A DNA stretch of 36,883 nt. It comes from Chromera velia. Taxonomy: Eukaryota > Sar > Chromeraceae. The notes under the pieces are model-generated. The model made no database searches. It was not told where the DNA came from and saw only the letters and a program-made list of their open reading frames with translations. The DNA lies in contig JAHBMJ010001032.1 in assembly GCA_018398765.1 (NCBI GenBank), positions 1 through 36,883 of the forward strand, given 5' to 3'. Made by a program: the position numbers and the translations under genes. Shown piece by piece: positions 10,618-36,608 of this stretch; position 1 is the first letter of the stretch; each line of letters begins with the position of its first letter.

Positions 10618-11200
10618 TTCCCGATCACCTCGAGAGTCAAACAGCGAAACTAAAGTAGGAGAGCACCATGTATCCCAGAAGCAGTCTCCTGGCGCAGATC
10701 ATTCTTCTTCTAAATTCCTAAAGGCGTAAACAAGGTCGCTCATTCACACGTTGGCATGGAGCTCTTTGCTCGATCAGTACTCAATCTATGCTGGCTGCCT
10801 GCAGCTTCTCGGAAGAGGTGCTGAGCTTATACATTCTGATATGATACCTGGTGTGATCATTCGTTCTGACAACGATCGATCGAAGTTCCCCGCCAATCCC
10901 TGTCATTTCCCCGCGCGCCGGTCAAACACTCATATGATCTCATATGCAATCTCATGCACGCGTACGCACGCGGGCAATTTTCAATGCATGGCTCAATTGT
11001 CAGGGGGGGTCCGCGCGCGCGGCGGGGGTCGAAAGCAAAAATGGCACTTCGCCTCGATCCTCACTTGCATCCGGCCTCGTACTTGGCTTATCCTGGACAT
11101 CTTATGACCAGTGTTGACCACGCATAATTCATGAGAACGAAAAGAAAGCACAGCGTGTATTTGCTTCGTCAAAGAGAGTCTCAGCGCGAAAGTAACGTGT
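10618..11200. promoter_or_regulatory. Divergent intergenic region between genes A and B
   Basis: This interval separates the start codons of the coiled-coil gene (minus) and the kinase gene (plus), so it should hold both promoters and 5' leaders. I see no TATA box or protein motif. It contains short self-complementary stretches (a repeated CATATGATCTCATATG-like motif near 10930 and GATCGATCGA near 10876) and a CG alternation near 11012. It is not AT-rich, unlike three of the other spacers. Confidence 0.4.
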
Positions 11201-13848
11201 ATGCTTCCTGCTGCTGCTACACCCAAGAGAATAGGTCAGCTCAGGTCGCGCCTTTTCGGTTTGTCAGATCCCATTGCAACACCCGAAATGGCGACTTACA
11301 CCCCTCCCTCTGTCGATCTTAACGAACCTGCTGGGGAAATTGCCGAGCCAGCGACACACCTTGGGGCCAATGTTGCTGGTGCCCAAGACGAAATGATCGA
11401 CATGGCACGAGGATCTGTTGAAGGAGGGGTTGTTCAAGGCGCAGTGCCTGACCTGCCACCGTACGAAAACTTCCGTGTGGGGTCCATCTCCGCTCAGCCC
11501 GGAGACCTCCTCCAGCAGCCCCTGCAACTTCAACTTGCGGGGTCTATACTCCCCGTCGACACGTTTTTCCTGTTTGTCAACCCGAGCTCGGGGGGGAATC
11601 AGGCAGGAACGTTCACATCTGCAGGGGTCGAGACTCTAATCTTTAAACACCCCGCCCCTGCGCAGGTTCATATCTTCGATATTACTGAGGGCCAGCACGG
11701 TGACAAACCCGGATTCCGAAAGCTGAAAGCAGAAGTAGCATCAGTGGCTGCCGCAACCCCCGCAGGCACGCAGCCCCGCCGTGTGCGTTGTCTTGCAGCA
11801 GGAGGAGACGGCACTGTCCTGTGGGCTCTGAGCGAGTTGGAGGCCCACGGTGTTGCTTTGGACTCTGTGGCTGTGGGTGTGATTCCATACGGTACAGGGA
11901 ATGATTTCAGTCGAGCACTGGGGTGGGTCTCGTCCCGCACTGCCCGTGCGTGGGCAGAGGCGGCCCTCCACTTTCGTGCTCTGTTGACCCGCTGGCTGCA
12001 TGCAGAGGTGACTAGGTTTGACCTCTGGAATGTCGAAGTTCACATCCAACAGGGGGGGTCGATCCAGAAGATTGATTCGAAAACTAGGAAAAAGAAGAAA
12101 CTGCTGGATACCGACAACACCCCCATTCTTACCAAATCCTCGACGTTCTGCAACTACTTCAGTTGCGGTTTTGAATCCAAGGTCGGGATTGGGTTTGATA
12201 GGAACAGGAAGAAGTCTGCGCTTGCGAACAAGATGGTGTACATGACGGAGGGAATGAAAAAAATGTACTGCTGCCATTCGATCATGAAGATCGATGAGAT
12301 CTTCGAGAAGATGGTCAAAAAGAACAGTGATGGAACGGAGGAGGTGGTGTTTATGGGGGTGGAGCACGGGAAGCATGCAGCACAGAGCAAGGATGACACA
12401 GCCCATCCCTACTTTGCCAAGCAGCCGGTGAGTCTGGTTGCGATCAACATTGGTTCCATGATGGGGGGATGCGATGTGTGGAGGAATGCGGGGAGGAAGG
12501 TGAACCTGAAGAACGTCGACAAGGCCACTGTGGAGAAACTCAAGTCGTCACCGCAGGTCAGGGGAAGAAAGAGGAAAGGGGGGTGATTTGCATGAAGAAA
12601 GAAGGTTTGGCACCCTTGTTGGTCTTTTTTGTCGTTTACGATTCCTCCATTTTTCTTGTTTTCCTTCTGCCTCTGTCTTCATCACCTCCGTGTCCCTAGT
12701 TCCGACTCCACGGCCAAGAAGGGAACAAACAAGGTTTGGTTGGTTGTCTTTTTGGTTGTGCTCTCTGCGGCAAGGATCTCTCTGGTTTCGCTTTCTGTTG
12801 GGAGGATCCTCCATTGGCCTCTACTTCCATTACTTTGTTCTCTGCTTCCCGCCGTTAAATTGGATGTCACACTTTTCTTTCACTCTCTCCCCCAGCCGGT
12901 TCCTGGCCAAATCCCTTTTTTTGTCCTTTTTGTTTGCTAGGCCTCTTTTTTCTACCTCTTGCCTCCTCTGCCCTCTTCGACTAGCGCAGTGAGATGATTT
13001 GCTTTCTTTTGCAGGATTCATTTTTGCTTCTTTTCTTCTTCGTATTCAACGTCCGCTTTTGGGTTGCGCTTGTCCCCTTTTTATCTGTTTCTTTTTTCTT
13101 CTGGCGGCCGTTCAGTAGTGAATTTTGATTTTTTCTTCCTGTGCGTCTTGTGTTTTCTTTGTGAAATGTTTTCATCCTCCCTCTGTGTCCTTTTTGGCTC
13201 TGTCATTTTGTCATGTTTCTCCTGGGTTCGTGCTCTGACGTTTGCTTGCCGGATTTGATCTGTTTGCAGAACATGGGAGACAAGCAGTTGGAGTTCATCA
13301 CCTTCCCTTCAGGGTCTGCCTTCGGGATGGAGCAGGTCCGCGCGAGTGCCCTTCCCTTCCTGTGTCATTCGCAAGAGTTCTGAAATGGCGCGACAGGCAT
13401 GTGACTTGAGGAGGTTGTTTCGCAACAAGAAGATCAAATAGACAGCTTGAAGCCGCCTTTTTTATGTGTATGTATAGCCAGGCAGAGACGAACAGAGTGA
13501 CAAATGGGCACATTGAGAAACGAATGCGATGGGAGTATGGTATTTGCAGGGTTGACGGGAAGACCCAGACGAATTCGATTCTACCTCTTCCATTGACTCC
13601 TGCAGGTGTTCCCGGGACAGGGCTACCGAGTGCATCAGGGCCCCGGTCCGTGGGAATTAACATTCAGGCGGGATCTGGGGGATACGCGTGTGTACATTCA
13701 GATCGATGGCGAGTTCTATCAGTTGGATCACCCTGACAGGATCCTCCTGAGACACGACAAGCAGGTCAACGTGCTCGATGCATCAGAGAAGAAAATCCCG
13801 AAGAAAATCACCAAGGCGGAGGTTGCAAAGTTTGAGAAGGAGTCGTAG
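11201..13848 (+). CDS. Diacylglycerol kinase (DAGKc + DAGKa domains)
   Basis: The enzyme phosphorylates diacylglycerol with ATP to phosphatidic acid, linking lipid second-messenger pools. Exons are 11201-12556, 13270-13335 and 13606-13848, joined in phase 0 by introns of 713 and 270 nt; the product is 554 aa. An alternative ATG at 11288 (MATYTPPSVD) has the better start context and gives 525 aa. Catalytic-domain motifs counted from that ATG are FLFVNPSSGG (about 94-103), the nucleotide-binding GGDGT (about 172-176) and GVIPYGTGNDFSRALGW (about 197-213). The accessory domain follows: a Phe-Ser-Cys-Gly-Phe-Glu segment, then LEFITFPSGSAFGMEQ across exon 2, then PWELTFRRD and QIDGEFYQL in exon 3. 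The C-terminus is lysine-rich. No C1, PH or EF-hand domain is visible in this model, so membrane recruitment would differ from animal types unless upstream exons exist. Confidence 0.9.
12557..13269 (+). other. Intron 1 of the kinase gene
   Basis: This 713-nt intron runs from GTCAGG to TTTGCAG. It is strongly pyrimidine-rich on the coding strand. It contains no exon or RNA gene that I can support. Confidence 0.75.
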
Positions 13849-18300: not shown

Positions 18301-20732
18301 ACACTGTGACAGAGCTGTAGGTCTCTCTGACCGCAAAGTCCTTCTTCTGAGTTCCACAAGCGAACATGTCGCCTTTCTTCAACTCCAGCTCAGCAGTGTC
18401 GAGGGACAGAACTTGTTGTGCGGCCTTCACTTCGTCCTTCTGGGAGGCGATGGCTTTTGCAACTGCAGGATCGAACTCGACCGCCTGCTCCAAGAAGAAT
18501 TTGTCCCTCGCGTCGACGGACTCCCTTGCGGCTGCAAGGAGGCAGTGGACAAAGACACAAGACACTCAGGAAAAAGTTAGCGAGACAGACAGTCTGAAAG
18601 ACGAATAGACGATCTCCTCAGAGAGACTCGCAGCCGTGCTTCACCTTTGCAGGGCTCAATCACTGTGTCCAACTGATTGCTTAAGATCTGCACGAAAAGA
18701 GAGAGTCGATCGTGAATGTCACCAGAAACACCAGACACGACAGCTCTCTGAACACAAACACTCACCCGCAAGTTCTTGATGCCGTACACCCACGAGCCGC
18801 CGAAGCGCCCGAATTTCGGCGACGGCTGGACCATCACGACTTTCACCATCTGAGCCGCCTCTCCACCGAGATCATCAGACGTGACGTTCAAGGGGTTTGA
18901 CTGCACTGAGGCCTTAAGATTCCAGTTGACCTGAGGAGGAAGAAGCACTCTACATGGTGAGCTGCAGGACTGTTGAAGATGGAGAGCAAGGAGACCAGGG
19001 CTGCAGTCAACTGACGCCGTCGTCGGATGTGAAGATCTCGTAAGCGAGTGGTGGAAATTCCCAGTCGATTTCCGCGCGAGAAACGGAGTGGCCTTGACCT
19101 GAATGAATCGACAAGGTGAAGGGTCAAAGCCGAATGTCAGACGAAAGGTACTGGAGGGGCCCTGCTGCGTCTGTCCTTACCGTTCTGGAGGTCGACCGTC
19201 ATTTCCACACGGGAGCGCTTGTCCGAATCCAACAGAGTAGAAGCCCAGTAGGTGTCCTTGCCGTCGAGGGCGAGCTCAGGGCCGTGTCCCTCTGAGCTTG
19301 AGTCAGCGGTCGCCTTCTTCTTTTCCGCAAGGTCGAGGAATCCTGCCTTGACGCCTCTCTGGCTGAGGCACATCGAGCCATCCGCGGCCAACAGACGGAG
19401 CTGGTTTGTGGGATCGAGCTTGAAACTGGAGCGGCCATCATTTTCCCGCAGCGCAGCAAGGCAGCTTTGCAGTACGAGCTTCTCCCCGTCGAGCGCATTC
19501 CCAGAAGGCACTGTGACGCAAAGAGGAGGCTCGGAGCGGACTGCTTGAATCTGGTTGGTGTGCGTGAACTTGAACAGTTCTCTTCCATCTCCACTGGCCA
19601 TCGCCTGCAACATGGAAAGGTGACGGCAACGCAGCAAGTGTGCGAAGCCTTATCCCGAACCGTAACCAGCTGACCCCTGCCTACGGTTCGACGAGGTGTT
19701 CACTGAGGACGACCCAACCCCCAATGACTGCGAGACTGACTGCTGTGCAACTATCCAGCTCTAGTCGAGTCCCCTCAACGTTGCTCTTTCCTCCAGCCAC
19801 TTGAAGGCAGAGCTCTTCATCAGAGGAGATTCCGGAGACAATCATGTTGACGGGCTCGCCGCCTCCGATCACCGACACCATGTTGATGCCGAAGTAGCCT
19901 TCGCTGATCATCAAAGGCTCTTTCATGTCGATGCGAAAGGCGCGAATCATGCTCGGGTGCTCAAAGAGGAGGTCACTTTGAAAGGCGACTTCACTCCTTC
20001 CGATGGTTGTCCAGTCCTTTGCGATGATGGGGGTGTCGGAATCAACGGGGTAGACAATGACCTGCAACGTCCAGCCCGGAAGTTAAGCTTTGCCTTTCAC
20101 ACAAGAGCAGCACTGATGTTCCCGATGCCTTTTCTTGTGGATTGTGCCTGTTGGAAGTCGCCTCCATCTCTCACCGACCTTTACAAGGCGGGGTGCATAC
20201 ACCCACGAGACCCGAATTCTGCAAACGTTGAGAAGTCCGTTTCAAGTAGCGAGCTTTCATGACGAAAGGAGCCAGCCGATCTGTTGACACACACCCGGCA
20301 ACTCGGCGTTTGCCTTCCAATGTGCCGCTCCACGACACGACATCGGATCCGTGACCGGCGTCAGAGCACCTGCACGTAGCAAGAAAGACCGTGTTCTTTG
20401 GGAAGTCGCCCTTCTGAAAACATTCCAAAACGACAGAGAAATTCACGTACCAGTACTCTGTCCCAGGGGTGATCGCGTTTTTGGCGTTGAACTCCAGGGC
20501 ATATGACGGAGCAGCACATTCCGTGATCTTGATGAAAGACGAAGGAGCCTGAGCGCAAAGGGACGGTAGTTTGGCTGAACAGAGATCCATCGGTCTACCC
20601 AAAGGATCCGAAGGGCTTCCGCACAGAATCGAAGCTGCTGACCGGTCCTGTGTCAATGCGTGATCGCAAGTTGCGATTGGCTCCCGCTGAGACCAGGCTC
20701 AGGAGAACCGAAAGCAGGAAGCACCGATTCAT
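15321..20732 (-). CDS. LCCL/lectin adhesive-like secreted protein (CCp1/CCp2-type LAP)
   Basis: Twenty-one exons give about 1,217 aa: 20732-20643, 20548-20451, 20369-20295, 20218-20179, 20061-19741, 19604-19181, 19098-19016, 18930-18766, 18687-18645, 18531-18358, 18314-18171, 18089-17846, 17764-17524, 17432-17273, 17183-17068, 16988-16908, 16816-16529, 16473-16320, 16214-15915, 15823-15740, 15649-15321. Order of domains: signal peptide (MNRCFLLSVLLSLVSAGA); discoidin/F5-8C (ALEFNAKN to YFGINMVSVIGG); ricin-B lectin (EELCLQVAGG, CVTVPSGNALDGEKLVLQSC); second discoidin (ALDGKDTYWAS, EIFTSDDG, GSWVYGIKNLR); a helical linker; a neurexin-collagen-like segment (SGFYWLLPKC, PIRAYCDMD); LCCL (YTVTCPAGC, LTVYGK, SSICAAAIFEGAISDLGG); and a C-terminal jelly-roll/levanase-like lectin. 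This order matches Plasmodium CCp1/CCp2, surface proteins of sexual stages. All phases agree. Only the junction of exons 10 and 11 is doubtful: the best model needs a 43-nt intron. Confidence 0.9.
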
Positions 20733-21533: not shown

Positions 21534-23420
21534 ATGCCGAAGCTTCGAATGATCCTCGCAGCCACGGCCTGCGCTGCCGTCTTCACGCCATCCAGCTCCT
21601 GCAGTGACTGCGGAGACTTCCCTCAGGGACAGGATCCGATGCTGGAGAAATTTGACAAGCTGGGAGCAGATGAGAGTATGCCTACACCCGAGTGAGTTTC
21701 CTTCAGGCCCCCCACCTTCTGGCGCTCTCTCCCTTTCCGAGTCTTCTCTTCCTGTTTTCCGGCCACTTCTTGATAGCGCGAGTGGTGTTCCTTCTATCCT
21801 GAATGTTCGTTTTTGACAGGTACACCGATACACCCCAAGAGAAAACTCTCGACACGTCCTTTGACATTTTTCCGCACCAGAAACAAAGGGAAAAAATCCT
21901 GACACTCTCAAAGTATCTTATCACACTTGAGGAGTCTTCAAAGTCACTGAACTCGTCAAGTGAATCTGTTTTGGGGGGGATGGTGTCGTCTGCACATCTG
22001 TATCGGTTGAGGAGACATGACTGTCCGAGACAGTACAAAATGCATGAAGTCCTCTCGTCTTTCTTTCTTTTCTGTGCAGCAAAATGGCAGAGGTCCTCGG
22101 TCTGTCCCCTGCGGAAGTTCAGAGTGCTCTTGCGGAGGCCGAGAAGGACGAAGCTGAGCACCCCACTTCTTTCCTGGAGACTCAGGCCTCGTATGGGTCA
22201 GCCTCCCTTGTAACTGTGGCAGCACTGTGAAACAGCTCCAGTTCTCCTTGTGTTGAGGCCCTTCCTGCATCCATGAATCCATGGCCCCACTTCAGCTCTT
22301 CATGTTTTGTTTTCCCGCTGTCTGGATTCAAAAATCGAACCGCTTGGGATTCCTGAGTAATCATGCTGGAGGCACGGTCTGCAGTGTATGCGTCTATACG
22401 GAACACCCAGGGAGAAAAGCAGATTGTGTACCAAAGCATGCGCAGGAACATTTGTAGAAGCCTCTTCTCCCATTGAATCTCCGCAGAGTGGCCCCTGTCT
22501 ACCCTGCTGGAGACGTCATCCAATTTGAACACCACCACCACATCGTCCCCGTTGACGCAGGTCGGCTGAGCCTCTTTCCCTTCCCCCCTGGTCTCTATTT
22601 CCCTTAGAGGTGCCTCTTTTTCTTTTGTTATACATCATGTTTTCCCCTATTGTCTTTTCATGCACATCCCTCCTCCGCCCCTTTGCTCTCCGGGAGAGTA
22701 CCCTCTTCCCCCCCCCCTCTCTCCCCTTCGTACGGCAGGTACGCTGGATGCTTTTGAACACCCTCTGTACTCTCCTTTCTCTTGCCTGCAGATGCCGCCA
22801 GCATCCAGGGCATGACCGGCTCTGACGGCGATAGGAAGCGCATCCGTGCTCACCTTCGCCGTGCATTTGCTGCCCAGCTGTCGCACTGGAGGAAGGCCAA
22901 GGCCGAGTCCCTCCTTGAGCAGGAGATCCAGAAGAAGATCCACGAGCGCCAGAGGTACCTCGATGAGTTGCTCACTCAGGTGCAGCTGCGCCACATCGCC
23001 AAGAAGCGCTGGCACGAGACCCTCACCCGCAAGTACAAGCAGTACATTGACCATCTTGAGAAGATGACAAAGAACATCGAAGAGTTGAACAAGGCTGAGG
23101 AGGCCCACCGTCGTCATCTCGAGATGGCTCAGCGTCAGCAGAAGCGCTGGGAGGCTCAGTGGTACAAGACTGCCCGCCTTAAGTTCGCCCTCGAGCAGTC
23201 CCTCCTCTCTCAGGAGGCCCTCAAGCGTCGCCAGCAGCGCCACCAGTCCAAGGCCGACGCCGCTGCCGCCGAGCAGGACTTCGCCATCAGAAAGCTCAAG
23301 GCAGCTGCCGAGGTCTACCAGCACGACATGGACGGTGCTCTCCTTGACAAGCAGCTTGATGCCACCCACAACCAGGAGGAGAAGTCTCTGCAGAACCTCG
23401 GTGCGTCAAACAGTCAAGCT

Positions 23421-23452
<32 letters not shown>

Positions 23453-26400
23453 GGCAGGCAGGCAACCCATGCACCAGTAAAAGAGAGAGAGAGTGATGGG
23501 CGCAGGAAGCCAGAGAACAGATAGACAGCACACCTTTTCTTTTTCTGAGACAGCGAGGCAGGAGCAAAGGGAACCAAGCAGACAAGCACCAGATAGGCGC
23601 CACTCCAGCTGACAAGTACTTGGACAGTCGGGCACACCGAAAGGTCAAGGAATCAAAAGGAGGACGGTACATAGAGAACAGACAGAGGCACACAGGTACA
23701 TGACAGGAAGGCAAATAAGCAGTCGGGCAGACTGAAATACGAGCTGACAGAACGGTAGTCGCATCAGGAGGCAGTCCCCCCGCTTCGCCCCCCTCTCATC
23801 CTCCACCGAAGTGTCTCCAATGACAATCTGTTTGACCGGCTCTCCCCTGTGCTCTGCGTTTTTTTTTTCTCTGTCCGATCTTTTCTTCTCTGCAGGATCC
23901 GTCTCCAACAAGCGTCAGTGCAAACGCGCCTCCGAACTTCCCCCGGCTCATACTTTGCTTTAATTGTGCTGTCATTTGAGCTTCCGACCCTTTCCTCTTC
24001 CCTACTTTGTTTTGTTCTTTCCTCACTTCCTCCTACAGCCCTTTGTTTCCCCGTCGCAATCTCAGTGGCCCTTCTTGTGTTCAACTGCTCCTCGACATCC
24101 GTCATCATCCACATCTGATTTCCCTTCGCGTTGTTGTATGCATCTGCAGACAGCGACTTCATCCGCAACAATCTTGCCGATCGTGAGTCACTCAATTTGC
24201 TTCATTGTTGCCTTCTACGGAATTGCCTCCTCCTTTTATCGCGACTTTGCTCTTCTTGATACGCGTCCCTCTTAATCGTTCCGGACTTCTTTCTGTCTGG
24301 TTCTTCGGAGAACCTACAGACAGACCTCCCAGTTGACGGGGGTTCCGATCCTGTCCTTGTTCCTCTCCTGGTTTTCCTTCTTCACAGTTCGAAACGAACA
24401 AAACCAAATCTGAACTTGTGCTTCCCCTCTTGTGTTTCCTTCTTTGCAGAGTTCAAGATGAACGAGAAGGCCTACGACACTGGTTAGTCAGCAGACAGAG
24501 AAAATAGATCCCGCCTCTTTTCTTTCACTTCAAAAGAGTCCGCTCCCCTTCCTCTTTTCATCGTTTCGTTTGAGTTCTCTTGCGGATGCAACTGTGCTTT
24601 CACTGCGGGGCCCCTCTCTGATCTTGTGAAGGTCTTTTTCTCTCATCCTCCTCCCTCCTCTCTCTGCCTCTTTCTTCCTTGCAGCCACGAGCGATCTCGG
24701 TGCGTGCGAGCTCCCCCCAAGTCCCCATGTCAAGGAGTCCGACAACACCAATAAGAAGAGAGAACGAAAACGGAAGGGCCCATGTTCATCTCAGCTACAA
24801 TCTGTCTGCTTGTTTCTTCTTCTCCTCCTCACTTTTCTGTGTTACCAGGACCCGTGAAAAGTAGAGGGCAGCAAAATTTTCTTCCCGACTGACGTCAACA
24901 GAAACCACTAGAACAGACACAGAGGCGGGTTTGTATACGAGAGAAGGGGAAAAGAAGCGATCGATTGGTGTCTCTCTCTGCCTTTGAGATCAGAAAGAGC
25001 GAGTCCACGCTCCCTGTTTATCTGCTATTTTTTCTCTCCATGAGTCATCGTCGTTTCCTCTTCCCTCCTCTTTTCTCTCTCTTCTCTGCCTGCAGTCAAC
25101 CAGGCAAAGCAGGGTCAGTCTGCTGATTTGTCCCTGCTGCCCGAAATCTCTTTTCGATGAAATTAAGAGGCTTTTTCTCTCCTTTGACCGTCCACCTGAC
25201 TTCATGTCTCCGCTCTGTCTCGTCACTTTCCTTCGCCTGCCCCTTTGCCTGCGTTGTCTCACCTCAGAGCTCGGGAGAGGACTGTTCTAGTTTGTTGTTT
25301 TCTCATGATTCCTCCTTTGGAATTTACCACTCAGATGTAATGCGGCTTTCTTTTCTCTGGAGTGTTTATCCCTCTTAGCTTTTCTTCCAACTTGCCAAAC
25401 TCTGTCTCTGTGTTTTTCTTTTCCTTCTCTACCGTGCAGCTTCCGATGTCGACTCCTTCAAGACACATCTCGGTCAGTTCTCTTTCTGTAATGCAGTTTC
25501 TTTCTTCGCTCCCTATCCTGTGAGTCATACCTTTGAACTCCCGCTTGGCAGAGCTGGAAAGTCAAGCTGCTAAAGGGATCACTCACCGCCTTCCCCCTTC
25601 TTCATTTTGCTGAACCCCTCTCAGACCCCAACGAAAATAGACCCGTTCGACTGCAGAATTTTCTCTCGCGCCCTCTGCTTTGGCTTCTTGTTTCGAAATC
25701 CTCGTCCCCATCTCCCCCCTTCCATGCCTTGCCAACTGCGAAAGCCGCCCTTTGAGATCTCCAGCCTCATGAGTCCTTCTGTTTCCTTGCCCTCTTGTTG
25801 CTTCATCTCTCCATGCATCTATCTGCAGAGCACGAGATCCTCATGGCCAACAAGACTCTGCCCGATGGAGTCACAGAGAGCCCCCCCCCCCAGACTGGAG
25901 CCGCGCTTGTCAACAACCCCGTTCCCCACACAGACACACAGGTCGCCTACGACATGCGCAAGCCCCAACAGTCCTACAAGTCTCTTGTCGGGGGATTCTT
26001 GCAGTTGGCTGAGTCACAGACAGAGAGGGCCTGCACTGCCTGGCAGCAGCCAACTTGTCCCCCTGAGAACAAGCCAGAGCACACCAAGTTGAAAACCGCC
26101 GATGGCAAATGCGTCAAGTCAGACGATAGTGACCCACAAGAGGCCAAGTGCGTTGACGCCGGCTGCGGATTGTACAAGAACAAATGCGCAGACCAGCATC
26201 TGTACAACCCCGATGACGAGCAGTGCTACAAAAGCGATGACGCAAAGAAGGGAGCAGAGCCCGAGTGCGCAGACGCGAAACCCGCTCTTGCAGACGATAA
26301 GCCTGGAGCCAAAGTGAAGTCATGCGCGGCAGATGTCGGAACCGCCGTCACAGAGGCCATATCCTCACTCCCAGCAGTGGAGCCTGCAAAAACAGATGGA

Positions 26401-29400
26401 GACGAGACCGCAAAAAAGATCGATCAGGCAAGGTTCGAGAGAGATGCTGCCAAGAAGGCCACGAAGGTGGCAGAGCTTGAGCAGGAAAAGAAGAGGGGGG
26501 AAGAGAACTGCGAGATCTTACTGAAGAAGGCAACTGATGCACTTCTGGCATCAGGCCTCGCGGGGGTTGATGCTGACGAAGCTAAAGATCATGGGGTCAA
26601 ACTTTGGACTGCGATGAAGGCATTCGACTGGGCTGCCAAGGGGGAAGCCGCAGACCTTAAGTCGACGGTAGCGGATGCCGAAGAAAGGCTCGCGGCAGCC
26701 AAGAAGCTGTTTGCGACCAAGAAGGCGGCTCTCGAGAAGAGCCTCACTGGGTACGAGGCACAGGTCGCCGCGATGATCGCAGACATCAAGGCAAAGGCCT
26801 CCGGGGATCCCACGGCAGAGGCGCTCTCTAGCAATAGCAACGCATATGCAACGCTTGGTACGTCCATTTGTTCTTGCAGATGCTGTTCCTTGCAGTCTTC
26901 CTTTGGGTTGATTGTGTTCCTGATACAACAGCGCGTTTTTATTCGTCGCTTGTCGACGGTCCTTCCTTTGTTTTCTAATTTTCTTCCTCTCATTCTTTCT
27001 CGAGTTCAGCGAGCGCCGCCTGGGTGTGTCTGAAAAATAACTTGCCTCAGCCTATTCGATGTACAAAACGAAAGGTGCCTGCATGTTCCGTTTCCGACCG
27101 AAACCGCCTTGTGACTCCCGTCGTCGATTAGATTCGTCTATGCAATCCCTCTGTCCTGCCTGTCCTTCTCTGTCTGCAGCTCGCGGTCAGTCCTTGGCCT
27201 TTTCCTGCAGATCTGTTTGAGGACATATGTCTTCGGGAGTATGGTTTTCTCTCTCTTCCGCTTTCTTCGGGATATTCCTGCGTTGAGTTCTTCGCGTTTA
27301 GGCAAGGGAAGAGAGTCTGACTTTGACTTCAGTCTGTCAATGGTTTTTGGTCGTTCTCTTTCGGTCGACTCAGCATTCTTCTCCACTTCCCCCTTTGTTT
27401 CGGTCTTTCTTTCGGTTGTCAGCTTTCTATTTTCTTCATTTTCCCTCTCTTATCTCAGCTGCTTTCCGTTTTGGTTTTTCGTTGACACCTAATCTCACCT
27501 TCATCATCTCACATCATTTCTCGCTCTAATCTCCCTCCCCGTGCCTCACAATGTGCATGGTGCAGTGAAGCTGATGGCAGCCGCACTCAAGCAGGAGCAT
27601 GTCCAGGAGAGTGAGAAAATCGGCCACGTTCGGGAGCAATCAGCTGCACTCCGTGAGTTCACAAGACACGGCTCTGTCCTGTACCTGATCGTTTCGTTTT
27701 TTCACCTGAACTTGCTGACCTGCATTGCCCTGTGTCTCCTTTTTTCTTCTTCTTCTGTACAAGCGAAGACCCCGTCTTTCCCCGACCCTCCTCGCCCCAC
27801 GATCTCGATCTTTTCTCTCGGAACGAGAATTCTTTTTCATCGTCGCCTCTCCTCTTTTTTTGTCGCTTCACGTTCGGCCCCCTCGATCCACAGGCCGCCT
27901 CAACAATTTGCGTCCAGCAGCAAATCCTCTATCCTTCCCTCGTGTGTGCTTGCAACTTGTACGTACATTTGGATTGACTCGGGTCTTTCTGCAGTCAAGG
28001 GCCACGAGAAACGTCAGTCAATCTTCTTTGCTTCTCCACCTAGGCGTGCTGTGCGTCTTTTCTCTTTTCTTTTCGGAGTTGCCATGTGCGGCTTGTCGTT
28101 TTTCTTCTGCCGATTTTATTTTCTCGCCCATTCAATCACTCAACGCACCTGAGTAGCTGATCATTGTTTTTCCCCTCCCGTCCCCCCCTTCTGTGCTTGC
28201 AGAAATGCGTCAGTCCGTCAGTCAGGTCTTCACTCTAACTGGGGAGTTGGTGATCAATCTTGTTTGCTGTTTCCATATTGTGCCGCTTTTTCTCTTGTTG
28301 CCTTTGATTTCATCCCCTCATTTTTTTCTTTCTTGCGCCTCGATCTGATCCAAGATTCTTCTCCTTTCGACGCCATCCTTTTTATTTTATTGCTGTGTGC
28401 ACTCATTCTTCCTTTCTGCTTCCATGCTTGCTCGCTTGCAATCCTTCCGCGCGATCAAAATTTGCAGTCACAAGTCAGTTGCTGTTTGAGCTTCGTTTTC
28501 TCATTTTTATTTTCTTCTGGCACTTGCTGTTCTTCTCATGCGGGTTGTGTCGTCTTTTCTGCTTTGTCGTTCTTCCTCTGTTCTGTCATTCTTTCTCTCC
28601 TCCATTGAGTGGAACTCTCTTTGACTGTGTCGCTTCAACCCGTATTGATGAATTTGGAGATGTCTGTCGCGTTTCGCTTCTCTCTGTCTGACCGACTGAT
28701 CGCTGTTCCCCCCCCCTGTGTCCCCTCTTCCTCTGTGCACCTGCCTCTGGACCTCTCCTCAACTCTGCTTGCTCCAGTTGCCGGTCAGTTGACCCTCTAT
28801 CCAATCAAGGTGCAACACTTCTCTTCCGTCCGCCTTCCTCCACTGACTTTGGCTCTATTTCTGCGCTGCCTTCGCTGGGAGAGTGACTTAGTGAACAAAG
28901 CTTCTGGTCTCTTCCTTCGAGCGAATGATGTTCCTGTCATGAGGTCTTCAGGGTTGCTTTTCTTTTTTCAATTGCTCCTCAATTCATCTCTACTGTTCCT
29001 CTCTGACTCTCCATGTGCAGCTTCCAACCTGAAGAAGGCAATCGAGGCCGAGGCGAAAGGCGAGGCTGCACCTTCACCCCAGCGTGAGTCAGGCCTGGCT
29101 CCTTTTCTGTCTCGCTCTCGTTCTCTCTTTCTCCCTTTCTCTCTTTGTCTCCTTCGCTCTTTCTGTATTTCGACACATTCCATCCTGGGTCTCTCCTCAC
29201 TTTGGATTTGCTCTGTCCAAAGCAGCTGCGCCGTCTGAACGTACACACTCATCTCCTTTCCTTCCTGCCTCTTTTTGCTCTTTTATCCTTGCTGGCTTGC
29301 AGAGGTTGGCGCCTACAAGGGAGTCTCGTTCCTTCAGAAACGTCAGTCAATGGTCGACAGTCGTGCAGATAGAAAACGAAAGCAGAATTCTCTGGGAGCT

Positions 29401-29671
29401 TTTTTCACTGTAGTGAGAGCTCCCTCTCCTACCTCCTGGCACCGCTTGTCTTCCTTTTCCTTCTTTCTCTTCCTCATCTCTTCCATCTCTCCTGCCACAG
29501 CTCCTCCTGTCGTTACGATGAGTTTGTACATGAACCAGCATTTTTTCTATCGTGTCTAACGCTTCTCTCCCCCCCTCTCTCTTGGTGTGTGCAGGCAAGG
29601 GAGGAAAGAGCCTCCGCGGAATGAGGGACGACGATGATGGGGACGAGTATGAGGTCCCCGACCAGATCTGA
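21534..29671 (+). CDS. Secreted micro-exon protein, helical and Cys-bearing, family unknown
   Basis: Start ATG 21534 gives a signal peptide (MPKLRMILAATACAAV). Firm exons: 21534-21691, 22080-22190, 22487-22560, 22792-23400, 23896-23913, 24150-24182, 24450-24482, 24685-24699, 25096-25113, 25440-25472, 25829-26857, 27180-27185, 27566-27652, 27894-27911, 27995-28012, 28203-28208, 28468-28473, 28778-28783, 29021-29083, 29226-29240, 29303-29341, 29595-29671. These give 823 aa; a likely extra exon at 21820-21912 would make 854. The 609-nt exon is a charged helix (QLSHWRKAKAESLLEQEIQK) with C-ending codons, suggesting high expression. The 1029-nt exon holds a Cys-bearing segment and then Ala/Lys/Glu-rich helix. 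The tail is acidic (MRDDDDGDEYEVPDQI). Micro-exon peptides join into one continuous helix-like, coil-like sequence, which supports them. From exon 22792 on, all introns are phase 1. I do not recognise the family. Confidence 0.78.
23421..23464. repeat. (GACA)n-(GGCA)n repeat in intron of gene D
   Basis: A tetranucleotide run begins 20 bases after the donor of the 609-nt exon and changes from GACA to GGCA units. It lies in the intron before the first micro-exon. Confidence 0.9.
23896..25472 (+). other. First micro-exon cluster of gene D (six exons of 15-33 nt)
   Basis: Exons are 23896-23913 (18 nt), 24150-24182 (33), 24450-24482 (33), 24685-24699 (15), 25096-25113 (18) and 25440-25472 (33). 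Each lies between a pyrimidine tract ending in CAG and a donor GTCAGT, GTGAGT, GTTAGT or GTGCGT. Each enters and leaves in phase 1. They encode short helical pieces such as SDFIRNNLAD, FKMNEKAYDT and SDVDSFKTHL. An optional 9-nt exon (25552-25560, Glu-Leu-Glu) fits the same rule but has the weaker donor GTCAAG. Confidence 0.75.
26104..26290 (+). repeat. Degenerate tandem Cys/KSDD repeat in gene D
   Basis: Inside the 1029-nt exon, two related units follow each other: GKCVKSDD...AKCVDAGC (from 26104) and EQCYKSDD...PECADAKPAL (from 26218). Both have the form Cys-x-Lys-Ser-Asp-Asp, then six or more residues, then Cys-x-Asp-Ala. With flanking cysteines this makes a small disulphide-capable region in an otherwise helical secreted protein. 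Confidence 0.6.
27180..29341 (+). other. Second micro-exon cluster of gene D (four 6-nt exons)
   Basis: Exons are 27180-27185 (6 nt), 27566-27652 (87), 27894-27911 (18), 27995-28012 (18), 28203-28208 (6), 28468-28473 (6), 28778-28783 (6), 29021-29083 (63), 29226-29240 (15) and 29303-29341 (39). All are phase 1 in and out. All four 6-nt exons are followed by GTCAGT. The joined product reads as helix (for example KGHEKQMLTIAASNLKKAIE) and then a Pro/Ala linker (APSPQPAPSEQ). The acceptor of 28468 has a poor pyrimidine tract and the donor of 27894-27911 is GTCCAG, so these two are the least sure. A possible further 18-nt exon (27211-27228, donor GTCTTC) was left out. Confidence 0.7.
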
Positions 29672-29923: not shown

Positions 29924-30952
29924 AGCATGCAGGGTGGGGTGGATCAGGCAAGGAAAGTCAGTGAAAAGACATCAGCTTGGTGAGGGAGTTGTCTGGCTTG
30001 ATCATTCACAGTGAGAATGAAGGAATAAAAGAATTGACAGAAGGACGCAGGTTCAAAAGAGAAAGGACATACAGGCAGGGGCTTGTAACTAGAAGAGATG
30101 TCAACCGAATCCTCAAGGGATTTTACAAACACCAACAAGGCCAGACTTCGTGAGAATGACAAGAGCATCAAAGCGTGAAAGTGAAGAAAACATCGCATGC
30201 GCTTCCTTGTGCATGCATGCCCTTCCCTACCCATCCTCAGTCGTGCCTCCCGCGGACTTGTCCAAAGAGAGGGAGATCATGCCTCCAGTCCGCCTCCCGA
30301 ATTTGCTTAGGGGCATTGTTGTTTGCTCGCCCCTTCGATTTGTTTCAATCAGTACATGGTGAAGAATGCGTGCGCAGAGAAGAGCGAGAAGCACAGAAAA
30401 GACTGGCGCAGCGTTCGATTCAATAAAAAATCTTATGTCATTTCACATCATACCTTCACCCATAGGCATTCACCATGCAAAGTAGCACTTCACAGCTTTA
30501 TCCGTCACCATACATTCCATGCATATATCGCAACTCATACATCTAGGTTATAAATACTCTCTCTAGTGCTCTTTCTATTTATGAGAGTATATATATACAT
30601 ATTGGGTTTTTAAGAAAAAGTTTTAAGAAGAAAAATCTGAATTAGGAATGGTGTTTTTAATATCTAGCAGGCTAGCTAGCTAGCATTGCCTAGCAAGCCT
30701 CTAGGTAAGCCTCTTTTGAGATACCTTTATTTAGAAAGATTTGAACAGTAGTGGACTGAACTTGGGTCTGAAGGAAAGTCACTATATATGTGTTCATCAT
30801 ATATACTATCAATATATAGTCAATTCGGTCAATTGACTCAAAAAAAAATTTAAAAAATAGAGCGGGTATATGACTGTTAAGAGCTAGGCTCCGATGGCTA
30901 TAGCCATTCATTCATTCATATATAATATATTCAGTTATGCTAAAGTCGGGGG

Positions 30953-31242
30953 CTAGGCCTGGATTCTAGATATATATATTTCAGATTATTTCTATATATT
31001 TTTTCTGAACTAAAATATAATATATAAATATATAAAAAACTAGATAAAAAAATATATTACCCCATCTGTGTCTACTACCTAGTATACTACTCATCATAAA
31101 TTGGTTTGATGACTTCGGTTAACAAGTCAGTTTATATATATAAATATCTATATAAATTTTTAGATAAATTTTTGATTCAATTTTGAAATCAAAATATATA
31201 GTATATTATCTGTATGTATATTTTTATAGAATCCAGGCCTAG
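30953..31242. repeat. 16-bp perfect inverted repeat with 258-bp AT-rich core
   Basis: CTAGGCCTGGATTCTA at 30953-30968 is exactly reverse-complementary to TAGAATCCAGGCCTAG at 31227-31242. The same 8-mer GTCGGGGG lies just before the left arm (30945-30952) and just after the right arm (31243-31250), in direct orientation. The core has no coding potential. This resembles a small non-autonomous inverted-repeat element with a target duplication, but one copy cannot prove it. Confidence 0.65.
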
Positions 31243-32373
31243 GTCGGGGGGTCTACAACCTGTTAATAGGCTGTTATACCGTGACTTATACGACCTATCA
31301 CATATATGTAACGGCCTTTTACTACTAACAGGGCGCAAATAAGTATTTAGATGACTCCTAGTATATGTATACTATATAGATATAGTATTTATATGTATTT
31401 ACTAAAATTGGTATAATATTTCTATATATATAACCCTGCAGATTTTTAAAATACTTTCTATGACTAGTTTTATAACTCTTTGACCGTTTTAGTTGTAACT
31501 GGTAGTATGCAAGGTGCAAGACAGTCACTTGGTTAAGTGATACATGCCGGTCGATCCTAAGATCTGTATTATTAATTGTATTGATACAGATGAGAATACA
31601 GATACAGATAGATCGAACAGAACAAAGACATAAGTAAGAGGAAGTCTCTTCATGTTGTTGTGAACAGTATTAACTTCTGTATTATGAATCTGTAAGGTGT
31701 GAACTCTGGATAACTATACCTTAGGAGCCCGACTACGCCAAAAACTGCTAAGTCGTTACAGTTTCTTCAGAACTAGGATAACTCTAGGGATAATTAATTA
31801 GCATTAGATTCGCGGCTGGAATCTATACAATCATAAGTTCAAAGTTTTTTTCAATTGCAAAGCGAAATGGTGGATCGAGTTTGGTGAACGAGACACTGCC
31901 CACCCTAGAACCCACCGTAGCATGTGCTGGTACAGTGCTATACACACCCAGTTTAATTTAATAGACGGATAGATCGAATCAGTCTGAAGAGTCAGTGAAG
32001 ACTGGTCTACAGATTCAAATCCTAGTTCAAAGTCTATTCAAAGCTAACTGTACAGCGCTACTTGCAAGGTCTTCACTTCATGACCAGTCTCAGACCAGAG
32101 CCTCCTAGTAAATGGTGGCTCACCGGCTTTAACCGCCTCAATTCATGACGCCAGCGTTTACGCGTGCGATAAAAGCTGTTGAATGCGAGCACCATTGTCG
32201 CCAAGAATCGTTTCTCGTGCGACGTCCAATATGCCAGTTTGCCTTGATAGCACGCTTTTCGAGACTCGTTTGTGTGATTCTCCGTCAAGTTCGGCGTCAA
32301 CTAGGGCACTGGGAACTCTTTGATGTGCAAACATGCACATCGAATGCCAACGGTGCTTCGAGACCACTCTGAT

Positions 32374-34432: not shown

Positions 34433-35153
34433 TAGACAACGGAGTCCTCCCCAGACGCCTTGCAGAGTGGCCTAAACTCGAATTGGAAAAATCAAACCAC
34501 GCAAAGATTCACAAGTCAAATCGAAAGAAGCGAATTATGTCAGCTGAGGAAGACTACTAACGCTAGTCTGTCAATGGGAGGGCGCTCTCTCACTTCCGAG
34601 CTTGGTCTCTGTGTTGACAGATTGGCAGGCTCCTGACAGTAGACGGACGCCCTTGACACTACTTGAGGTCGGGAGAGCACAAAATACAGAGCCTGTGTAA
34701 ATCTGCAGCAATGTAGCATGCCATTCTGGACCTGCCCTAGGTTGCAGTGGACAGAGAAGGTGGATCAGCAGCTTCTCAACAAGTGCGAGGTATGCGACGA
34801 CTATGCGTGTGAACAAATGTCGTTGAACATCGTTGAGAGCCTGGCCGGATCTCGAGTCAAACAGAATCTCGGAGATTCTCGGAGACGCTTCTCTTGGAGA
34901 CGGCTGCAGGCTCTTGCATGCACATGGGCGCGCGCGCGCCTCGCGTACGTTGTGTCAGGCAAGAGGTATTAATACTTTGCGGGCAACTAAGTGCTGGTGG
35001 CAGTTTGATTGACGGCAGTCTGTGTCAATGTCCGTCACGGTTTTCGGTCAAGCCGCCAGAACAGTTAAAGCTGCCTTGCATTGTCCATCAGGCCGACCGG
35101 CTGAAACATTTGGACCGGGCTGAATCAGCAGCTTCAGGACGAAGGTGCAAGAA
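34433..35153. promoter_or_regulatory. Divergent intergenic region between genes E and F
   Basis: This separates the start codons of the RAB5IF-like gene (minus) and gene F (plus), so both promoters should be here. An 84-codon frame at 34718-34972 has no recognisable features. There is a tandem TCTCGGAGATTCTCGGAGA near 34867 and a CG run near 34930. It is not AT-rich. Confidence 0.35.
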
Positions 35154-36608
35154 ATGAAGTCCCCGGCTCTTTTGCTCGTCATCTGTCTGAGTACTTTGTC
35201 CGTTTCCTGGGGGTTTCTCCTAAACCAGGGGTGTGGGGACCCATGGCTACGGCAGACAGGCTCGTCTCGACTGTGTCTAGCGAGTACAGAAGCTCCGATC
35301 GAACCTCCACTGCCGAAAACCTACGGTGATGTGGCACAGAAAGCCTTTGACTCTTTGTCTGATGTGGAGAAGTACAACAGTCTTGCACAAGGATTGCTGA
35401 GAAAGATCATTCAAGTGAGGGCAGAGAGACAGCAGGGTGGTGAGGGAGCACCAGCTCTGCAGTTTCTACGAGAGTCCCTGCAGGAAGGGGGGGACTTGGG
35501 GGGGTATGAGACCGCATGGGACGTTGTGAAGGAGATGACGCGCAAGGGCATCCGACTGACCCCGCGCTCGCTGTCTCTCCTTGTCGATGCTGCGTCAATC
35601 TCCAGAAGTGCGCGGGTGCTTTCACAGTCTCTTGGCCTTGCAGAGGCAAATGGGGTGTTGCAAGCATTCAATACTACATGCAAGGGCTTGGAGAGGGCTG
35701 CAGTCCAGAAGCCGAAAGTTGATCTTCCATTCCGTCTCCCTCTACCCACAGGGAGACGGCGGGAAGGGGACCAGAATGGGGAATCGAAGCTGCCTGAAGA
35801 CGATCGTAAGGGCGAGGTGCTTAGTGCGTTAGGTTTCTTGGGCTACACGGGGGGTTGGGTTGGGGATGAGATTGTGGGTCCGCTTGTCGACACAGACTGG
35901 ACGTTTTTCGATCAGGCCCTGCCTGGAGTTGCCCTCGCGGGGTTGGGGGCTGCTGCCCTGTATGACTTTTTGCAGGGGGGGCAGAAAGTGGGTCGGCAGG
36001 TGGCTGCAGGACTCAAGAGACTTTTCTTGCAAGACGTTAAGAGAGAGAGTCTGGTGGAGGCAGCTTCGTTCCTGACTGCCTACTTAGATGGTGTGCCTGC
36101 GTTTCCCTTTAGGCCAACTAGCCAAGATGCCCTGCGTGTTTGGGCACTGTCCACTGAGGAGGGAAAGTCAACAGCAGGAGGGAGAAGAGCTCCCGAAGTA
36201 AATGGGTCTGTCGACAGTCTGCTCGTGTGGTTGATGGCCCCTGTTGTTGCCGAGAGTGATGCTCATGAAGATTTGATCTATAGTGACCCCCGCATTCCCC
36301 GCAAGTTTCTGCAGGCTGTGGATGAAATAGAGAAGGGGGGGGGGGTCGAGGTGGACAAAGGAGAGATTGAGAAAAGGTTGCGTGCTGCGTTTGATAAAGC
36401 ATCTGCACTCCTTTCGAAATATCGTTCGTTGCATCTTCTCTTGGCGGAACGTATGGAAAGTGAAATTTCGACGGTCGGAGACTGTGTTGCTTTTGTTGAA
36501 AACTTCTTTCGACAAGCAGACGAATCAAAATCGTCACCGGAGAAAGAAAAGACTCTCAAGAGCGAGGGATCAGAAAGGAAGCAGATCCTGTGGCAAAAAC
36601 AGTGGTGA
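35154..36608 (+). CDS. Unrecognised protein with complex-plastid-type leader
   Basis: A single exon encodes 484 aa from ATG 35154; an upstream GTG is not needed. Residues 1-20 form a signal peptide (MKSPALLLVICLSTLSVSWG) followed at 21 by Phe and then a Ser/Arg/Thr-containing stretch low in acidic residues (GSSRLCLASTEAP). This is the two-part leader, often with Phe at the junction, of proteins sent to secondary red-lineage plastids. The mature part has helical regions at about 55-180, a hydrophilic linker at about 200-220, a Gly-rich segment with GFLGYTGGWVGDEIVGPL (about 227-244) and one likely membrane segment (ALPGVALAGLGAAALYDFL, about 255-273). The C-terminal half is helical and ends in a charged tail. 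I do not recognise a family. Plastid location is inferred from the leader only. It is the only intronless gene in the window. Confidence 0.75.
   Translation: MKSPALLLVICLSTLSVSWGFLLNQGCGDPWLRQTGSSRLCLASTEAPIEPPLPKTYGDVAQKAFDSLSDVEKYNSLAQGLLRKIIQVRAERQQGGEGAPALQFLRESLQEGGDLGGYETAWDVVKEMTRKGIRLTPRSLSLLVDAASISRSARVLSQSLGLAEANGVLQAFNTTCKGLERAAVQKPKVDLPFRLPLPTGRRREGDQNGESKLPEDDRKGEVLSALGFLGYTGGWVGDEIVGPLVDTDWTFFDQALPGVALAGLGAAALYDFLQGGQKVGRQVAAGLKRLFLQDVKRESLVEAASFLTAYLDGVPAFPFRPTSQDALRVWALSTEEGKSTAGGRRAPEVNGSVDSLLVWLMAPVVAESDAHEDLIYSDPRIPRKFLQAVDEIEKGGGVEVDKGEIEKRLRAAFDKASALLSKYRSLHLLLAERMESEISTVGDCVAFVENFFRQADESKSSPEKEKTLKSEGSERKQILWQKQW

What the first reader, a model, noticed from the sequence alone, without database searches (positions are those of the whole stretch)
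23896..29341. A micro-exon gene (MEG-like architecture) in a probable alveolate alga
Gene D has 17 consecutive internal exons that are all multiples of three and all bounded by phase-1 introns. Thirteen of them are 36 nt or shorter. The gene also has a signal peptide. Schistosome micro-exon genes are defined by the same combination (secreted product, symmetric exons of about 36 nt or less), and skipping exons gives protein variants. Here any subset of exons could be dropped and the frame would survive. The joined peptides form a smooth helical sequence, which random splice-like sites would not do. I know of no report of such a gene in chromerids or apicomplexans.
Basis: partly seen in the sequence, partly recalled or inferred. 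Interest (0 to 1): 0.93.

Follow-up and report, generated by a model that had tools for sequence, protein, structure and literature searches.

The report
Algal gene with tiny in-frame exons
A gene in a probable chromerid alga is cut into many tiny exons, some only six letters long and nearly all in the same reading phase, and a distant duplicate keeps several of the same exon sizes while an unrelated gene shows the same design, so the pattern looks real and not unique, though no RNA data were available to show how it is spliced.

Summary
I model a 20-exon gene D with a signal-like start at 21534-29671 (+); introns 3-19 are all phase 1. The decisive evidence is a paralogue, P, on contig C962 of the same genome. 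Across the first block (16 of 50 residues, 75 of 150 bases identical) it keeps the same micro-exon sizes in order (18,33,33,15,18,33,[long],6); my model of P has 22 exons of 36 nt or less, ten of 6 nt. Splice matrices trained on D alone find 28 short-exon candidates in P; 22 are multiples of three, all open in phase 1 (shuffles: mean 1.8, maximum 6 of 200). An unrelated coiled-coil-like gene on C346 carries a similar array in phase 2. Pooled genome-wide hits to strict 6/9/12/15-nt exon patterns give 27 same-strand pairs within 2 kb, none on opposite strands. Twenty-one other introns are mixed in phase. D is not a schistosome-type MEG: micro-exons make 8% of its coding sequence. Inclusion in mRNA and alternative splicing are untested. 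The organism is probably Chromera velia (inferred). New variant of a known kind, probably convergent with schistosome MEGs and aphid bicycle genes.

The parts
21534..21691 (+). Exon 1, ATG and signal-peptide-like N-terminus MPKLRMILAATACAAVF; intron 1 phase 2
22080..22196 (+). Exon 2 (117 nt); intron 2 phase 2
   Evidence: aligned exon in P
22487..22560 (+). Exon 3 (74 nt, as in P); first phase-1 intron follows
   Evidence: same phases in P
22792..23400 (+). Exon 4 (609 nt), charged, rich in helix formers; the matched part is 61% identical to P
23896..23913 (+). Micro-exon 5, 18 nt, phase 1-1
   Evidence: same size in P (C962:13834-13851)
24150..24182 (+). Micro-exon 6, 33 nt, phase 1-1
   Evidence: same size in P
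24450..24482 (+). Micro-exon 7, 33 nt, phase 1-1
   Evidence: same size in P
24685..24699 (+). Micro-exon 8, 15 nt, phase 1-1
   Evidence: same size in P
25096..25113 (+). Micro-exon 9, 18 nt, phase 1-1
   Evidence: same size in P
25440..25472 (+). Micro-exon 10, 33 nt, phase 1-1
   Evidence: same size in P
25829..26857 (+). Exon 11, 1029 nt, phase 1-1; homologous to the 999-nt exon of P
27180..27185 (+). Micro-exon 12, 6 nt, phase 1-1
   Evidence: a 6-nt exon at the same place in P
27566..27652 (+). Exon 13, 87 nt, phase 1-1 (its place is taken by several micro-exons in P)
27894..27911 (+).
   Evidence: weak splice sites; resembles EELNNLR of P by eye
27995..28012 (+). Micro-exon 14, 18 nt, phase 1-1
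28203..28208 (+). Micro-exon 15, 6 nt (AAATGC; P has AAATGA)
28468..28473 (+). Micro-exon 16, 6 nt (TCACAA; P has TCAACG)
28778..28783 (+). Micro-exon 17, 6 nt (TTGCCG; P has CTTCCG)
29021..29083 (+). Exon 18, 63 nt, phase 1-1 (P has a 72-nt exon at this place)
29226..29240 (+).
   Evidence: weak splice sites; left out by the Viterbi path
29303..29341 (+). Exon 19, 39 nt, phase 1-1 (P: 42 nt, shared FLQK)
29595..29671 (+). Exon 20, terminal, stop TGA

Best explanation
Gene D encodes a probably secreted, charged, helix-rich protein whose coding sequence is broken by a phase-locked array of real spliceosomal micro-exons. The array is part of the normal mRNA. Every micro-exon adds a whole number of residues and is flanked by introns of one phase, so exons can be gained, lost, split or skipped without shifting the frame. 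The architecture predates the D/P duplication. Its first block has kept its sizes while sequence drifted; the C-terminal block has kept changing in exon number, with more micro-exons in P. I infer that arrays grow inside one founding intron: any new exon born or cut there must be symmetric in that intron's phase, which explains uniform phase within a gene and different phases between genes (1 in D and P, 2 in C346). Shown by sequence: exon series, phases, size conservation, recurrence. Inferred: inclusion in mRNA, secretion, mode of growth. Not shown: use for protein variation.
For: Paralogue P: seven micro-exons of identical size and order, although over the first six the DNA is 75 of 150 identical and the protein 16 of 50 (BLOSUM sum 69; best of 10,000 codon permutations 26). 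Scan of P with D-trained splice matrices, frame ignored: 28 candidates, 22:2:4 by length modulo 3, all 22 open in phase 1; shuffles mean 1.82, maximum 6 of 200; reverse strand 6 candidates; the two stricter thresholds agree (16 against 0.80, 12 against 0.24). Unrelated C346 array: 12:1:0 by length modulo 3; 12 open in phase 2 against a shuffle mean of 1.03, maximum 4 of 200; a chain of 13 exons scoring 109, against at most 21.4 for any chain on both strands of 12 random loci; it ends on a terminal exon with 461 codons open in the same frame. Elsewhere 21 introns have phases 9/7/5 for 0/1/2, with none called in one shuffled control. Pooled genome-wide pattern hits cluster on one strand: 27 pairs within 2 kb against 0.
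Against: No transcript was available; inclusion in mRNA is inferred. I chose P's exons with phase 1 in view, so the full list of P is weaker evidence than the blind scan. On C346 the splice scan alone does not settle the phase: the best phase-0 chain scores 99.5 and phase 1 64.6, and of the 13 short candidates 11 are also open in phase 0 and 11 in phase 1; phase 2 rests on the 69-nt exon and the terminal exon. The growth model is not proved: between shared anchors D has 87+18 nt where P has 15+9+30+12+9+6+6+6, which fits splitting or fusion as well as addition. Candidate short exons in the random sample show no 3n excess (39/41/26).
Confidence: 0.72

Rival explanations
1. MEG-like variant generator: the micro-exons are alternatively skipped to make many secreted protein variants, as proposed for schistosome MEGs.
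For: All modelled internal exons of the array are symmetric; in D none of 136 possible exon junctions creates a stop; signal-like N-terminus; micro-exon number differs between D and P in the C-terminal block.
Against: In P 18 of 378 junctions make a stop, one of them by a single-exon skip; sizes in the first block are fixed between diverged paralogues, which points to steady inclusion there; only two members were found in this genome.
Confidence: 0.25
2. Constructive neutral evolution: micro-exons accumulated because phase-locked introns make them harmless; they are constitutively spliced and have no role in regulation.
For: Recurs in an unrelated gene in another phase; the U1 5' end is standard and C at +3 of the donor is common in other introns here (14 of 21), so no special machinery is evident.
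Against: No array turned up in 12 random loci and strict pattern hits form few clusters, so arrays are not spread evenly; constant sizes in the first block suggest constraint on the protein.
Confidence: 0.4
3. Introner-like intron invasion cut one long exon into micro-exons.
For: An alveolate with mobile introners is known (Amoebophrya, PMC7789003, abstract and passages).
Against: The introns are GT-AG and not similar to one another apart from short or low-complexity matches, the longest 112 nt at 67% to a repeat-filled intron of P; four introns examined have no paired terminal inverted repeats, only one short internal palindrome; random insertion would not give one phase.
Confidence: 0.1
4. 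Artefact: chance splice-like sites strung together by eye.
Against: Shuffle tests in three arrays and size-matched micro-exons in P.
Confidence: 0.04

Closest known systems
Schistosome micro-exon genes (MEGs)
   Same: Very small symmetric exons, mostly multiples of three and down to 6 bp, long introns, N-terminal signal peptide (PMC4350168 and PMC10526429, passages)
   Different: In MEGs about 80% of the coding region lies in 6-36 bp exons (PMC5825161, passage) and the longest of 87 aligned proteins is 189 residues (PMC10526429); D has 8% in such exons and about 814 residues; homology to MEGs was not tested; alternative splicing unproven here
Schistosome VAL-6
   Same: A gene with one portion built of very small symmetric exons (PMC4350168, passage)
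   Different: Different protein and lineage (inference; not compared)
Aphid bicycle and megacycle genes
   Same: Many small internal exons nearly all of one phase; divergent members recognisable by gene structure (PMC9168663, passages)
   Different: Bicycle internal exons are almost all phase 2, about 17 exons on average; D and P are phase 1 and include exons of 1029 and 999 nt; C346 is phase 2; lineage unrelated
Introner elements of Amoebophrya
   Same: Unusual intron proliferation in an alveolate (PMC7789003, abstract and passages)
   Different: Those are non-canonical repeated introns with inverted and direct repeats; these are GT-AG and dissimilar

Membership tests
Schistosome-type MEG | Most (about 80%) of the coding region in symmetric 6-36 bp exons | tested here: not met
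   192 of 2445 nt in exons of 36 nt or less; definition from a passage of PMC5825161
Schistosome-type MEG | Several symmetric micro-exons in series | tested here: met
   11 exons of 36 nt or less, all 3n and phase 1-1, in D; 22 in the model of P
Schistosome-type MEG | Secreted product | tested here: inconclusive
   The strongest hydrophobic stretch is at the N-terminus in both D and P, and no 19-residue window after residue 40 averages above 1.07; no signal-peptide predictor or experiment
Schistosome-type MEG | Protein variants by exon skipping | not testable with these tools
   No transcripts held
Schistosome-type MEG | Sequence homology to known MEGs | not tested
   No schistosome proteins were compared; Pfam gave no match over its cut-off for D or P
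Aphid bicycle genes | Nearly all internal exons small and of phase 2 | tested here: not met
   D and P are phase 1 in nearly all introns from intron 3 on and have exons of 609, 1029 and 999 nt
Introner-derived introns | Introns similar to each other, with terminal repeats | tested here: not met
   introns after exon 4 of D and after exon 5 of P compared; inverted repeats in four introns only

The most novel reading that the evidence does not exclude
This chromerid genome carries a whole class of genes with phase-locked micro-exon arrays, in unrelated protein families, each locked to one phase of its own. Such arrays arise by repeated birth or splitting of exons inside a founding intron, a general route by which eukaryotes evolve micro-exon genes that was hidden because gene predictors tend to skip exons of 6-15 nt.
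Probability: 0.4. Interest if true: 0.86.

Novelty: new variant of a known kind. Interest (0 to 1): 0.76.

Why it matters
Genes built partly of series of symmetric micro-exons have been described in schistosomes and aphids, where they are tied to parasitism or plant feeding. [quoted passage not shown] It also suggests that proteins in such genomes may be mis-annotated wherever exons of 6-15 nt occur; I did not see the existing annotation.

Tried and rejected
That phase 1 is a genome-wide habit: 21 other introns are 9/7/5. That 6-nt exons are common in the genome: the strict 6-nt pattern has 81 hits in 177.8 Mb (reversed-pattern control 24); the 7-nt pattern has more, 165 (control 82), with many TCAG repeats among the 100 listed. 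In that capped 7-nt list I see one same-strand pair within 5 kb (C303, 3.1 kb apart) and none within 2 kb. A gapped pattern (536 hits, control 255; 100 listed) showed no clear length rule (41/34/25 modulo 3); nor did the random sample (39/41/26). That an altered U1 explains GTCAGT donors: its 5' end is standard. That tandem donors mark micro-exons: 4 of 26 against 3 of 17, and 2 of 20 ordinary introns. Introners. A permissive gene finder over-predicted everywhere; only its path through D, whose splice sites trained it, was informative. A first intron caller was too strict: it returned one intron. Species check by two light-harvesting fragments against the PDB found relatives but, among the 60 matches shown for each, none that I could tie to Chromera. 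No PDB relative of D/P (best E 0.34). The minus-strand chain on C346 (8 exons of 6-66 nt, score 41.6) was not followed up. Of 20 random loci fetched, 8 with many N were left out; all 20 entered. In some searches the terminal exon of P was entered two bases late; one search gives 28014-28051 and the junction count is unchanged.
Full report
What was checked. I rebuilt the gene from the raw sequence: 20 exons at 21534-29671 on the plus strand, about 814 codons, plus two doubtful exons. Introns 1 and 2 are phase 2; introns 3 to 19 are phase 1.

Chance. Splice-site matrices trained only on D's exons of 33 nt or more were used to scan the stretches between those exons. At the third of four thresholds they find 9 candidates that are multiples of three and open in phase 1, 8 of them distinct, against a mean of 0.77 and a maximum of 4 in 300 shuffles; four are 6 nt long against a mean of 0.037. 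The strictest threshold agrees (8 against 0.29, maximum 3). At the two loosest the observed 11 and 10 exceed the means (3.43, 1.74) but are each reached by at least one shuffle. A Viterbi gene finder with no rule about phase returned the same exons 2 to 20, without the two doubtful ones, but it was trained on D's splice sites and over-predicts elsewhere.

The paralogue. A protein search of the whole genome found one other locus, C962; with P as query the best hit outside D and P has E 0.05. Read from 9800 to 30000, P has a signal-like start, introns 1 and 2 in phase 2 and intron 3 in phase 1 as in D, one extra phase-2 intron inside the counterpart of exon 4, and then 27 introns in phase 1. After that its sizes are 18, 33, 33, 15, 18, 33, 999, 6, 15, 9, 30, 12, 9, 6, 6, 6, 6, 6, 6, 72, 9, 6, 6, 6, 45, 42 and a terminal exon of 38 nt at 28014-28051. 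The exons were picked with phase 1 in view. The first seven micro-exons match D in size and order. The DNA of the six before the long exon is 50% identical (75 of 150) and the protein 32% (16 of 50), yet the protein alignment scores 69 against a best of 26 in 10,000 permutations. A 6-6-6 run before the 63/72-nt exon is also shared (AAATGC/AAATGA, TCACAA/TCAACG, TTGCCG/CTTCCG). A scan of P with D-trained matrices, frame not considered, gave 28 candidates with lengths 22:2:4 modulo 3; all 22 are open in phase 1 (not every one is an exon of the model; one, for instance, uses an alternative acceptor inside the 42-nt exon); shuffles average 1.82 with a maximum of 6 of 200, and two stricter thresholds agree. 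This is the strongest single piece of evidence.

Recurrence. Complete lists of strict patterns (two pyrimidines, TGCAG, n bases, then GTCAGT for n = 6, 9, 12 and GTGAGT for n = 15) were obtained over the genome: 81, 95, 98 and 84 hits, with reversed-pattern controls 24, 28, 37 and 36. Pooled, they give 27 same-strand pairs within 2 kb and none on opposite strands, where 0.72 each are expected for even scatter; within 5 kb 42 against 1, with 1.8 expected. Of the 27, twelve come from C346, three from D and two from P, six (one each) from C104, C3884, C2637, C3565, C811 and C3762, and four from C1315 and C3880, whose near-identical matches look like repeats and should be discounted. Pairs in one locus are not independent, and n = 12 and 15 were chosen after C346 had been read, so its share is partly by design; the six unread loci are the freer evidence. 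Of these loci only C346 and P were read besides D. On C346 13 exons, twelve of 12-21 nt and one of 69 nt, form a chain in phase 2 that runs into a terminal exon with 461 open codons in the same frame; the joined peptide is a smooth charged sequence typical of coiled coils by eye. Phase 2 is set by the 69-nt exon, open only in that phase, and by the terminal exon; on splice scores alone phase 0 is close (99.5 against 109.1). Short candidates there are 12:1:0 modulo 3. The protein shows no similarity to D (best E 5.5). Twelve random 10-kb loci on both strands give no chain above 21.4, while C346 scores 109 and P 136; D scores 65.6 because exons over 99 nt are excluded.

Against a general habit. 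In 21 introns called elsewhere with no phase rule (none in one shuffled control) phases are 9, 7 and 5 for 0, 1 and 2 (one of the 21, on the minus strand inside gene D, is probably false; acceptors were scored with the D matrix). C at +3 of the donor is common there too (14 of 21), and the U1 RNA has a standard 5' end, so the splicing machinery looks ordinary. In the random sample the length spectrum of candidates shows no 3n excess (39/41/26).

How it works. Shown: symmetric phase-locked exons, conserved sizes, recurrence. Because each array sits in introns of one phase, exons can be added, split, fused or skipped without a frameshift. I infer that arrays grow within a founding intron, which fixes the phase; this accounts for phase 1 in D/P and phase 2 in C346. 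Whether growth is by exon birth or by splitting is open: between shared anchors D has an 87-nt and an 18-nt exon where P has eight micro-exons of similar total length (93 nt), while P also has five extra exons of 6-45 nt further on. Constant sizes in the first block suggest that those exons are normally included. The protein has a signal-like N-terminus, no other strongly hydrophobic segment, high charge and few prolines or glycines in exons 4-10, no Pfam match over its cut-off and no solved relative. A secreted structural or granule protein is my guess.

Organism. 58 light-harvesting matches, 11 alveolin-domain matches (that model also rings in Caulobacter) and an assembly size near that of Chromera velia (193.66 Mb in 5953 scaffolds; PMC4501334, passages) make Chromera velia likely; it was not tested directly.

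Known relatives. Schistosome MEGs and aphid bicycle genes share the arithmetic. D fails the MEG description by share of coding sequence. Papers were seen as search listings with starts of abstracts and as passages; none was read whole. No paper in the library holds 'Chromera velia' with 'microexon', 'Chromera' with 'micro-exon', or 'Vitrella' with 'microexon', and the 20 listed of 1,008 hold no 'microexon'; the library lacks most subscription journals.

Noticed in passing
G000 C346:1246-8356 (L046, L047): Unrelated gene with a phase-2 micro-exon array (twelve exons of 12-21 nt and one of 69 nt) and a long terminal exon
   Followed up: yes
G000 C346:9900-13640, minus strand (L047): Chain of eight 3n exons of 6-66 nt, scoring 41.6, phases 1 and 2 equal by score; perhaps a further gene with symmetric small exons
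   Followed up: no
   Followed up: no
window 24150-25472: Exons 6-10 of D (7-11 of P) encode 11, 11, 5+6 and 11 residues, i.e. eleven-residue units, possibly hendecads of a coiled coil (not tested)
   Followed up: no
window 11135-12586 +: Diacylglycerol kinase catalytic and accessory domains (Pfam)
   Followed up: partly
window 19137-19649 -: Minus-strand open frame with a weak ricin-type lectin match, below Pfam's cut-off
   Followed up: no
window 35124-36608 +: 494-codon open frame with a hydrophobic start that might be a signal or plastid-targeting leader (by eye); only a weak PPR match below the cut-off
   Followed up: no
window 2309-2384 +: ARAGORN calls a tRNA-Arg (tct) inside a region of long open frames; not verified
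   Followed up: no
window 30001-32000: Drop in GC (0.40 and 0.33) not far from long AC/AG repeats at 32.9-33.0 kb
   Followed up: no
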